Positions 49,060-52,276 of a stretch of 64,000 nt of DNA are shown here, piece by piece. Position 1 is the stretch's first letter, and every line of letters starts with the position of its first letter. The DNA is from Bacteroidota bacterium (lineage in GTDB: Bacteria > Bacteroidota > Bacteroidia > B-17B0 > Aurantibacillaceae): assembly GCA_025362395.1 (NCBI GenBank), contig JANYGK010000106.1, positions 1-64,000 of the forward strand, in the 5' to 3' direction. The translations under genes were made by a program, and so were the position numbers. The notes under the pieces are model-generated. The model did not search any database, was not told the DNA's origin, and saw nothing but the letters and a program-made list of their open reading frames with translations.

Positions 49060-49716
49060 ATGGGTAATCAACAATATATTAAACAACTTGAAGAGTTAAT
49101 TAATTTGTATAATACAATGAGAAACTTGTCACAGTATGCAGACCTTAGTGATCAGCCAAAACAAGATAGGCAAAGTTTGATTACGCGAACAATCGCTGCT
49201 ATATATAGAATTTCGGGGAAAGAATCAATATATAGTAAAGAGGTTCATAGAAACTTAGAAAAGGATCCTGAATTAAATGCACATACAACTGTTATAATAG
49301 GAATAGCAAAAGCTTTAAAAGATGATGTAAGTGCAGACTATTTAAAAACATTAATTGAATTAACTCATGCAGATATATTTTCAGATTTTTTAGAAATGGC
49401 TAGTCATTTAAATGATAATGGCTATAAAGACGCAGCAGCAGTGCTTGCGGGTTCAACGTTAGAAAGCCATCTCAAAAAATTATCAATTAAAAATGCCCTT
49501 CCAATTAAGGAGAGTGACAAATCAATTAAAGCAGATAGACTAAATGCAAATTTAACAAAAGCAACTGTGTATAGTTCATTGGATCAAAAAAATGTTACAG
49601 CATGGCTTGGACTTAGGAATGATGAGGCTCATGGTAATTACGGAGCATATAATAAAGAGCAAGTGAAATTATTCATTTCGTCTATTCAAGATTTCATAAC
49701 TCGAAATCCTGCATAG
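49060..49716 (+). CDS. HEPN-motif protein, putative RNase/defence
   Basis: A 218-residue soluble, mainly helical protein. Near the C terminus (residues ~186-191) it carries LRNDEAHG, which fits the R-x4-H catalytic signature of HEPN domains, a fold that includes many toxin and anti-phage RNases. The helix before it (AAAVLAGSTLESHLKKL) fits the HEPN four-helix bundle. The N-terminal half is helical and unrecognised. The sequence is AT-rich and codon use (AAA, AAT, ATA, TTA) looks unlike neighbouring core genes. It ends one base from the convergent membrane/zinc-ribbon gene. Toxin or defence use is inferred. Confidence 0.7.
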   Translation: MGNQQYIKQLEELINLYNTMRNLSQYADLSDQPKQDRQSLITRTIAAIYRISGKESIYSKEVHRNLEKDPELNAHTTVIIGIAKALKDDVSADYLKTLIELTHADIFSDFLEMASHLNDNGYKDAAAVLAGSTLESHLKKLSIKNALPIKESDKSIKADRLNANLTKATVYSSLDQKNVTAWLGLRNDEAHGNYGAYNKEQVKLFISSIQDFITRNPA

Positions 49717-50535
49717 TTATTCATAATTATTTGTCTTCCATCTATCTAAAGATAATAATCTTTTTTGTGCTTTTTTAATAGCTTTATCATCATCTCCATG
49801 CATTGATAAATTTTGAGATATGATTCCCCTCATTTCTGAAATTGTTATTTCGGGCTGTTCGAATAATCCATTTTTATAGCAGTGAATACAATAGTGATAG
49901 TTTTTATTCCCATTTGATTCTGTTCCATAGATTATAAAGGAATTAAAAAGTTTACTACAACTTTGACATCTAATGGAATAAGTTGGTTTATCAAGATTTT
50001 GACGGATAGCTATTATTCGTTCATTCAATTCTTTTTGTTCCCACATAAATAAACCGAGAATGGTAATTAAAAATCCAATACTGAATAAACATGCACAGCT
50101 GTAAACTTTATCAGAGTATAACGCATCTTTTTCGTTTTTAATTGCTTTATTCAAAGTTTCAATGAGTTTAAGGCTATCCATCTCAGAAGATATTAAAGCA
50201 TTATCCCTTATGTATGTTTTATCTAAAGATTTCAACTGTTTATCTATTTCATTAAATTTATCTAGAAGGGTTCTGTTCATTCCTTCCTTTTTAATTGCTG
50301 CATACAAAATTGAATCTTGTTTCCATATTTCTCCATAACTGATTTCGCTTATTTTTAAAGATGTTGCAATTTGTCTAGTTTTATGACTCAAATTTATTTC
50401 TTGTTCTCGAAATCCATGATCTGCTTGTTTGTTAATATTATATTCGTTATAAATATATAGGCCACAAAGTGTCATTATTGTTAACCCTATAAACGTTATT
50501 AATTTTCCGAAAAAGTCAATATTTGGTAATACCAT
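49717..50535 (-). CDS. Membrane protein with C-terminal zinc ribbon (PF12674-like)
   Basis: A 272-residue protein. TM1 (~10-28) and TM2 (~145-165) bracket a ~110-residue extracytoplasmic helical, coiled-coil-like region. The cytoplasmic C-terminal part has two CxxC pairs (RCQSCSKLF and YCIHCYKNGLFEQPE) in the arrangement of the putative zinc-ribbon family PF12674. That family is usually found as small soluble proteins, so fusion to a two-helix membrane module is unusual. The gene converges with the HEPN-motif gene with no gap; a functional pairing is suggested but unproven. Confidence 0.7.
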   Translation of the reverse strand: MVLPNIDFFGKLITFIGLTIMTLCGLYIYNEYNINKQADHGFREQEINLSHKTRQIATSLKISEISYGEIWKQDSILYAAIKKEGMNRTLLDKFNEIDKQLKSLDKTYIRDNALISSEMDSLKLIETLNKAIKNEKDALYSDKVYSCACLFSIGFLITILGLFMWEQKELNERIIAIRQNLDKPTYSIRCQSCSKLFNSFIIYGTESNGNKNYHYCIHCYKNGLFEQPEITISEMRGIISQNLSMHGDDDKAIKKAQKRLLSLDRWKTNNYE

Positions 50536-50584
50536 ATTTCAAATATTTAATGAGTATTAAATTTCTTTACTAATTGACTTGAAA

Positions 50585-50803
50585 CTATCCCAAATCCACC
50601 AATTTCGAAAGTGTAACCTCCAAGGCATTGGCAATCTCAAGTAAAGTATAAAGAGTAGGATTTACTTTACCGTTCTCTAATTTTTCAATGGCTTGTCGGT
50701 CTTTGTTGCAGGCTCTTGCAAGGTCGGATTGGCTCCAGCCTTTTTTCTCACGAAACTCAACAATGCGTTGACCTATTTTCTTTTTTAGCTTATCGCGTGT
50801 CAC
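50585..50803 (-). CDS. XRE-family transcriptional regulator
   Basis: A 72-residue single helix-turn-helix protein (HTH_3: RIVEFREKKGWSQSDLARAC, then KLENGKVNPTLYTLLEIANA). No ATG is available, so the start is a GTG. Divergent from the SymE-like gene across an 88-bp region that has two palindromic sites, so it is very likely a repressor of both genes. Functions as the antitoxin-type regulator in the proposed module, by analogy. Confidence 0.88.
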   Translation of the reverse strand: MTRDKLKKKIGQRIVEFREKKGWSQSDLARACNKDRQAIEKLENGKVNPTLYTLLEIANALEVTLSKLVDLG

Positions 50804-51144: not shown

Positions 51145-51438
51145 TCCAGTAACCAAAAACATGCCCGCAATAATATAAAACATCACCGTAGTAGCTCAAA
51201 ACATTCTCGCAGTAAGGCAAAGTATACCCGCAGGAGCTCAAAACATTACCGCAGTAAGCTGAAGTGTTAACGCAGTAGGCTCAAATGTTAACGCAATAAA
51301 CTAAAATATATCCGCAGGAACTCAAAATATACCCGCAGTAAGCTGAAGTGTTAATGCAGGGGCTCAGAGTGTTAAAGCAGTAAGCTAAAACATACCCGCA
51401 GTAAGCCGAAGTATTAAATATGTAGCTCTAAACATTAA
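51145..51438 (+). repeat. Tandem repeat, 14 units of 21 bp
   Basis: Fourteen contiguous degenerate 21-bp units (51145-51438), best form CGCAGTAAGCT plus AAAACATTAC. Even and odd units differ in a consistent way (AGCTCAAAACATT against AAGCTGAAGTGTT), hinting at an older 42-bp period. A period of 21 equals seven codons, but stops in the units (TAA at the end of many) rule out translation through it. No spacers, so not CRISPR. Confidence 0.85.
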
Positions 51439-51455
51439 AATTATTGTGTAATAAC

Positions 51456-51495
51456 AAAAAACCGACGTAAACACATAGATTCACGTCGGTTTTTT
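51456..51495 (-). terminator. Intrinsic terminator after the 253-aa hypothetical gene
   Basis: A 13-bp perfect stem AAAAAACCGACGT pairing with ACGTCGGTTTTTT around a 14-base loop, 20 bp past the minus-strand stop. The symmetric A/T runs also let it work on the plus strand. Confidence 0.85.
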
Positions 51496-51514: not shown

Positions 51515-52276
51515 TTAACCTTTTACGGTCTTAAATTCAACGCCGCTTATTTGTTTATACTTAGCGCCTGTTGCTCCGTAAATAGATTTTACATACATTT
51601 TAACGTCTTTAGCAGTTTGCACTAAACCGTTGGTGAGGTTGTAAAGCGATTGATCGCGCGATATGCGGGAGTTGCTTATGGTAGTGTAAGCGTTTATAAC
51701 ACCGGTGTTTGTATTTTTTAAAGCCGTTAATCGGGTGTTTAAACTAACGATCTGTAAATCGGTTTCGTTTGGTAAGTAGGTAGGTTCGGCAGATAATGTT
51801 TCGATAAGCCTGGAAAAATGTTCTACCATATTGGAATGCGATTGCTGTGATGATGAAATGGATTTTGGGGTGTCTAACACCGGCGCGGCAGGGTCTACCG
51901 CAGCAGGAGCAGCAACAGAAACAGCAGAAGTTTTTGTTTTTTTAGAACCGCGCAGCTTGTCTACAAACGAGCGGGCATTTTTTACGGTAAGTACTGAAGC
52001 ATCGGTAGCATCCAAGGCATTAACCAAACGGGTAGAGAGTTTAGTGAGGCCGTCGAACGAAGTGTTTCGTGAATTTACCGCATTGTTGTAAGCTACTATT
52101 GAGCTTGTTACGGCAGCTACATTAGCCGTGCAGCCGGCTAATTGTGTTTGCAGTGCCGGAATAGTTAAGCCTGTCTTGCTTGGGTTGTAATCGGTGCCGT
52201 AGCCGATGCAAAAGGAAATAGGGTTTTCGAAATTTGCCGTGTTTTTTGCATGTCCTGTTTCTGATGTTGATGCCAT
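51515..52276 (-). CDS. Uncharacterised protein, conserved in Bacteroidota
   Basis: A 253-residue soluble, largely helical protein (starts MASTSETGHAKNTANFENPI). Similar proteins occur in many flavobacterial-type genomes and have no known function. An Ala/Pro linker lies near the middle (SAVSVAAPAAVDPAAPV). Repeated amphipathic helices suggest coiled-coil or bundle structure. It has no signal peptide or membrane segment. It has its own terminator and an upstream region within the islet's right border. Confidence 0.75.
   Translation of the reverse strand: MASTSETGHAKNTANFENPISFCIGYGTDYNPSKTGLTIPALQTQLAGCTANVAAVTSSIVAYNNAVNSRNTSFDGLTKLSTRLVNALDATDASVLTVKNARSFVDKLRGSKKTKTSAVSVAAPAAVDPAAPVLDTPKSISSSQQSHSNMVEHFSRLIETLSAEPTYLPNETDLQIVSLNTRLTALKNTNTGVINAYTTISNSRISRDQSLYNLTNGLVQTAKDVKMYVKSIYGATGAKYKQISGVEFKTVKG

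What the first reader, a model, noticed from the sequence alone, without database searches (positions are those of the whole stretch)
51145..51438. Fourteen-unit 21-bp tandem repeat with alternating unit types
The units run without a gap for 294 bp, with even and odd units differing in a regular way, suggesting an ancestral 42-bp period that then duplicated. It lies just after the SymE-like gene and before a strong terminator. It has no spacers, does not encode a continuous peptide, and does not match a feature I can name. It could be a protein-binding array, an RNA with repeated motifs, or a mutational relic.
Basis: seen in the sequence. Interest (0 to 1): 0.6.

Follow-up and report, generated by a model that had tools for sequence, protein, structure and literature searches.

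The report
Helical-protein gene with conserved 21-bp array
The repeat is not a loose oddity beside a toxin-like gene: it is the non-coding half of a travelling two-part module (a gene for an unknown helical protein plus about twelve 21-base repeats) that recurs across the bacterial phylum Bacteroidota and has no match in the libraries searched here; what it does is still unknown.

Summary
The array is real (51145-51438; 13-14 units of exactly 21 bp, no indels). It belongs to the convergent gene 51515-52276(-), which encodes a basic, all-helical, internally duplicated 253-aa protein with no Pfam, NCBIfam, PHROG or PADLOC family. Homologues of that gene occur across Bacteroidota. 75 of 80 loci from one scan carry a period-21 array 3' of the gene, usually 10-15 units (mode 12), plus 28 of 30 from a second survey and 2 of 2 viral contigs. 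The arrays share one degenerate consensus with fixed orientation to the gene; a consensus learned on Flavobacteriia predicts the other arrays, the window's included. They are non-coding and have no strong RNA structure. In close pairs they are usually more conserved than four-fold sites, and half are separated from the gene by a terminator. Gene plus array moves as a ~1.2-kb unit whose 3' end looks like an integron attC. Most likely the array is a phased set of sites bound by the neighbouring protein (inferred; 50%). A second, sequence-unrelated class of 21-bp arrays sits 5' of HTH_26 regulators. No description was found in the open-access papers searched.

The parts
51145..51438 (-). Array of 13-14 x 21-bp units; strand given is the sense of the partner gene. 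It fits the phylum-wide gene-sense consensus ATATnGC(A/T)(A/T)C(C/T)GCA(A/T)(T/A)(T/A)AGAA (own consensus TTtgg.tTACTGCGgtaATat)
   Evidence: held-out match to a consensus learned on Flavobacteriia, z 3.5
51515..52276 (-). Partner gene: 253-aa basic (pI 9.4) all-helical, internally duplicated protein of unknown function ('GHAKN' family, after its N-terminal motif E-x-GHAKNxANF)
   Evidence: no family in Pfam, NCBIfam, PHROGs or PADLOC
51456..51495 (.). Terminator-like hairpin with T/A runs (works on either strand) between the partner gene's stop and the array
   Evidence: sequence; 37 of 75 related loci have a terminator in the same place against 0.7 in shuffles

Best explanation
Shown: the array and gene 51515-52276 form one conserved, jointly inherited and mobile module, gene - terminator - array of about twelve 21-bp units, in fixed relative orientation. 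Inferred: the array acts mainly as DNA, as a row of binding sites for the protein encoded next to it. Units spaced by exactly two turns of B-DNA put every site on the same face of the helix, so about twelve copies of the basic, two-lobed protein could assemble side by side into a nucleoprotein complex. What the complex achieves (stabilising or silencing the mobile module, partition-like anchoring, or a conflict function) is not determined.
For: Linkage: 75 of 80 homologue loci have the array 3' of the gene; 71 period-21 segments within 1 kb of the gene in 206 kb against 8 in 771 kb farther away, several of which belong to a further gene copy; 28 of 30 loci of an independent survey (two with period 22); 2 of 2 viral contigs. 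Sequence specificity: one shared consensus, 4.33 bits against 1.46 with columns permuted; cross-validated between Flavobacteriia and the rest, correct orientation in 36/39 and 35/35 held-out arrays. Selection: in most close pairs the array is more conserved than four-fold sites while flanks are unrelated (L117/L136 0.92 against 0.78; L066/L087 0.84 against 0.62; L106/L115 0.81 against 0.52). Copy number mode 12. Array type follows protein type (Mantel rho 0.45, null maximum 0.21). DNA rather than mRNA: a terminator precedes the array in 37 of 75 loci, folding is near that of shuffles, and there is no common open frame. Protein: median pI 9.4, confident helical model in two similar halves. Parallel: arrays with the same 21/42-bp plan but another consensus sit 5' of 16 of 16 HTH_26 genes, a DNA-binding family.
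Against: No direct evidence of binding. The protein has no recognisable DNA-binding domain, and the best fold matches are generic helical bundles (McpS ligand-binding domain, Z 9.1). The correlation of array and protein type is weak among distant pairs (rho 0.13) and could be co-inheritance. In some loci the array is 5' of the gene or separated by another gene (L025, L028, L063, L061 second copy). Several homologues of the window's own genus lack a detectable array (L026, L027, L030, L032, L035). Two distant relatives have 22-bp units, which breaks exact helical phasing.
Confidence: 0.5

Rival explanations
1. The array is transcribed (from its own or the opposite strand) into an RNA of repeated motifs that the protein binds or processes, working like a type III toxin-antitoxin pair or an RNA sponge.
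For: Gene, terminator and repeat array side by side resemble the parts list of type III systems; the strand-specific consensus suits RNA as well as DNA; integron cassettes often carry toxin-antitoxin genes (general knowledge).
Against: Order is reversed (array 3' of the gene, beyond a terminator); units are highly diverged within an array; folding near shuffles in either strand; no Rfam match; the all-helical protein is unlike ToxN.
Confidence: 0.2
2. The array acts through DNA shape or as an insulator: phased A/T-rich and G/C-rich blocks every two helical turns bend DNA or block read-through behind the gene, independent of the neighbouring protein.
For: Spacing is 21 bp in nearly all cases; both array classes have an A/T-rich block per unit; arrays lie next to terminators.
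Against: A shared, orientation-fixed consensus that follows the gene family is more than shape needs; two relatives use 22 bp.
Confidence: 0.12
3. The array is a minisatellite or MITE-like relic that hitch-hikes on a mobile module and has no function.
For: The module is mobile; BrickBuilt of Porphyromonas shows that spacer-free 23-bp repeats can ride in MITEs (PMC4596501).
Against: The array is usually more conserved than four-fold sites, keeps about 12 units and is almost always present with the gene.
Confidence: 0.08
4. The array is a decayed or hidden coding region of heptad repeats.
For: 21 bp is seven codons; some arrays have open frames (17-19 of 76 in the two best frames).
Against: 37 of 76 arrays, the window's included, have no fully open frame, and no frame is shared; the window array has no start codon in its most open frame.
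Confidence: 0.02

Closest known systems
Iteron arrays of plasmid origins and parC/centromere-type partition arrays
   Same: Many direct repeats spaced by about two helical turns next to the gene of a protein presumed to bind them
   Different: Chromosomal; protein is not a Rep, ParR or ParB family member (no family hit); no homologue found in 72,556 plasmid records; array 3' of the gene, often behind a terminator
Type III toxin-antitoxin (ToxIN, CptIN, TenpIN)
   Same: Two-part locus of protein gene, terminator and tandem-repeat array
   Different: Array is 3' not 5'; 21-bp diverged units without strong fold; helical protein not related to ToxN by any model searched
BrickBuilt MITE of Porphyromonas gingivalis (PMC4596501)
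   Same: Spacer-free tandem repeats of similar length in intergenic DNA of a Bacteroidota species
   Different: 23-bp repeats inside a transposase-less element with terminal inverted repeats; no linked gene family described
Integron gene cassettes
   Same: In part of the loci gene plus array ends in an attC-like hairpin, and copies in different genomes diverge right after GTTA
   Different: The array is an extra element besides attC; no integron integrase over the NCBIfam cut-off was found; the window copy has no attC

Membership tests
Integron gene cassette (for gene plus array in other genomes) | attC site 3' of the gene (R''...GTTRRRY, hairpin when single-stranded) | tested here: met
   20 loci have an attC-like R'L' motif within 400 bp 3' of the array against 5% of background windows; L078 site folds as a long hairpin, z -3.66. 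A stricter first scan had no power. Window copy: none near the array
Integron gene cassette (for gene plus array in other genomes) | Exchange at the attC crossover between unrelated flanks | tested here: met
   L105/L117, L068/L073, L106/L111 and L078/L082 are alike up to the GTTA core and then diverge
Integron gene cassette (for gene plus array in other genomes) | Integron integrase in the genome | tested here: inconclusive
   TIGR02249: only sub-cut-off tyrosine-recombinase matches in 9 of 9 genomes, as in 13 of 14 controls
Type III toxin-antitoxin | ToxN-like endoribonuclease | tested here: not met
   No Pfam, NCBIfam or PADLOC match; all-helical model
Type III toxin-antitoxin | Repeat RNA encoded 5' of the toxin with a terminator between | tested here: not met
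   Array is 3' of the gene in 75 of 80 loci
Type I toxin-antitoxin SymE/SymR | Array linked to the SymE gene | tested here: not met
   None of four other SymE-like loci from the genus has the array
CRISPR | Unique spacers between repeats | tested here: not met
   Units are contiguous
MITE (BrickBuilt-like) | Terminal inverted repeats around the array | not tested
   The mobile unit was seen to comprise gene plus array; terminal repeats of the array alone were not searched systematically
Iteron/partition array | Sequence-specific binding of the neighbouring protein to the units | not testable with these tools
   Needs EMSA, footprint or ChIP

The most novel reading that the evidence does not exclude
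A previously undescribed class of Bacteroidota genetic modules in which a dedicated protein (an orphan helical family, or separately an HTH_26 regulator) is paired with its own non-coding array of about twelve 21-bp sites. One version moves between genera, apparently as integron cassettes, as a self-contained protein-plus-array system.
Probability: 0.7. Interest if true: 0.85.

Novelty: categorically new. Interest (0 to 1): 0.75.

Why it matters
A phylum-wide gene family with no family model turns out to be almost always paired with a non-coding array of conserved motif, orientation and copy number, and the pair is under selection and mobile. That is the signature of a system, and it makes an orphan family testable at once: bind, footprint, delete. 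The second class, with a recognised DNA-binding regulator, suggests that phased 21-bp arrays are a general device in these bacteria.

Tried and rejected
SymE link: rejected. Rfam: nothing over the gathering score in the window. Coding: rejected. RNA structure: window folds worse than shuffles; across arrays median z about -0.4 (an earlier larger run, timed out). BLAST of the array DNA against relatives: only chance matches, because the sequence is too degenerate. Covariance model R1 of the units over genomes gave many weak hits at poor E-values; only those confirmed by periodicity were used. Common 42-bp consensus for odd and even units: none (7.33 against 7.19 bits). Same consensus for HTH_26 arrays: not supported (correlation 0.26, null mean 0.27). 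Phages and plasmids: no homologue. Fold search: no Foldseek match at E 0.001 or better; middling Z to helical bundles says nothing on function. My first, stricter attC scan had no power (6 hits against 5.6 expected) and was replaced by a motif scan written after inspecting the ends. Literature: searches found no description, but only open-access text is held.

Full report
What is there. Positions 51145-51438 hold 13 clear and one degenerate unit of exactly 21 bp with no indel. Self-identity peaks at lags 21, 42, 63, 84, 105 and 126 (0.58-0.67; the best of 1000 shuffles is 0.41). All six frames are closed within the array. Neither strand folds better than its shuffles and Rfam has no match. The sequence occurs once in the genome.

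Finding the partner. The plus-strand neighbour is a SymE-like gene (PF08845), but none of four other SymE-like loci from the genus has a period-21 array. The neighbour on the other side, 51515-52276 on the minus strand, encodes a 253-aa protein with no family in Pfam, NCBIfam, PHROGs or PADLOC. Homologues in 11 of 20 genomes of the genus often have period-21 arrays beside them, with other unit sequences. A scan of 84,980 species genomes with the family alignment gave 80 loci in Flavobacteriia, Chitinophagales, Cyclobacteriaceae, Bacteroidales and others. 75 of the 80 have the array on the 3' side of the gene (for L063 and L121 the stretch picked there is weak, and the L063 array proper lies one gene farther on). 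Of the other five, L079, L125 and L058 end at most 172 bp after the gene, and L123 and L127 have none. Within 1 kb of the gene there are 71 period-21 segments in 206 kb; farther away 8 in 771 kb, and other periods (apart from 42) are rare in both. Two of the loci with far arrays hold further copies of the gene beside them (L061, L090). A second survey of Bacteroidia genomes found the family in 35 of 295 genomes and 20 of 156 genera, 1-6 copies each; 28 of 30 fetched loci have an array, two of them with period 22. Both homologues in viral contigs have one too.

One consensus. Aligning arrays by circular register gives a single motif in gene sense, ATAT-n-GC(A/T)(A/T)C(C/T)GCA(A/T)(T/A)(T/A)AGAA: 4.33 bits against 1.46 (maximum 1.51) after permuting columns, and 3.19 if half the arrays are reverse-complemented. 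Learned on 35 Flavobacteriia arrays only, it fits 39 others in the right orientation in 36 cases, the window array at z 3.5; the reverse experiment gives 35 of 35. Copy number is mostly 10-15 with mode 12. Odd and even units share no common type, so the 42-bp alternation is array-specific history. Differences between units show no transition excess overall (0.33), as expected for saturated positions around a constrained motif.

Selection and mobility. In close pairs the array is usually more conserved than four-fold sites of the gene, although flanks are unrelated. Pairs such as L105/L117 and L068/L073 share a block from about 70-90 bp before the start codon to about 105-150 bp after the array, then diverge. 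L078 (Flavobacterium) and L082 (Epilithonimonas) share a 1.47-kb block at 98%. In many loci the 3' end carries an attC-like motif (20 loci within 400 bp against 5% of background windows), pairs diverge right after its GTTA core, and one such site folds as a long hairpin (z -3.66). The module therefore travels, in part of its range, as what looks like an integron cassette; an integrase over the NCBIfam cut-off was not found. The window copy has no attC-like end. Its place is particular to this genome: none of 16 orthologous arginase loci of the genus has the gene within 1.5 kb.

Anatomy bearing on mechanism. A terminator lies between gene and array in 37 of 75 loci against 0.7 in shuffles, in the window at 51456-51495; in some Flavobacterium copies the hairpin is itself built from array units. 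Folding of a third of the arrays is near shuffles in both strands (median z -0.37). The protein is basic (median pI 9.4) and AlphaFold2 gives a confident helical model (pLDDT 88.7) of two similar halves joined by a disordered linker. Many invariant residues are polar or basic (N12, K107, N190, R207, K226, K230). The 21-bp spacing equals two helical turns. These facts favour a DNA array read by the neighbouring protein, but no binding has been shown; the RNA reading keeps 20%.

A second class. A 117-122-aa HTH_26 regulator (PF13443) has a period-21/42 array directly 5' of it in 16 of 16 loci, including one in this genome (contig C100, about 77.6-77.8 kb). Its consensus is AT-rich and unrelated to the first. 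The same architecture with a recognised DNA-binding protein supports, without proving, the site-array reading.

Limits. Array edges were set by threshold; the second-survey and genus loci were not all curated; the attC motif was written after inspecting examples, so its enrichment is supporting, not blind, evidence. Several homologues of the window's own genus lack a detectable array.

Noticed in passing
L167-L182, L139, L141, L149; own genome contig C100 ~77.05-77.85 kb (L174): HTH_26 (Cro/C1-type) regulator genes with a period-21/42 array immediately 5' of the gene; consensus AATTAACA..., unrelated to the array of the window
   Followed up: partly
L046 1-166 and L048 19858-20000 (own contigs C2 start and C36 end); L050 11659-11847 (C45): Degenerate 20-bp tandem arrays in intergenic DNA; the C36-end and C2-start arrays share a unit (ACTACCGCTGCATTCA), so the two contigs probably join through one array that broke the assembly
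   Followed up: no
L046 13761-13938 (own contig C2): A second, diverged 21-bp array between two convergent genes without the partner gene (solo array, consensus match z 3.1)
   Followed up: partly
L209 and L210: Distant relatives of the partner gene carry 22-bp (44-bp) instead of 21-bp arrays
   Followed up: no
L063 9848-10951; L139 1783-3048: An unrelated ORF lies between the partner gene and its array, or directly before an array, as if cargo had been inserted
   Followed up: no
window 49060-50803: Small island between seryl-tRNA synthetase and arginase: weak HEPN-like protein, zinc-ribbon protein, XRE regulator and SymE-like gene, possibly an accessory or defence-like cluster
   Followed up: no
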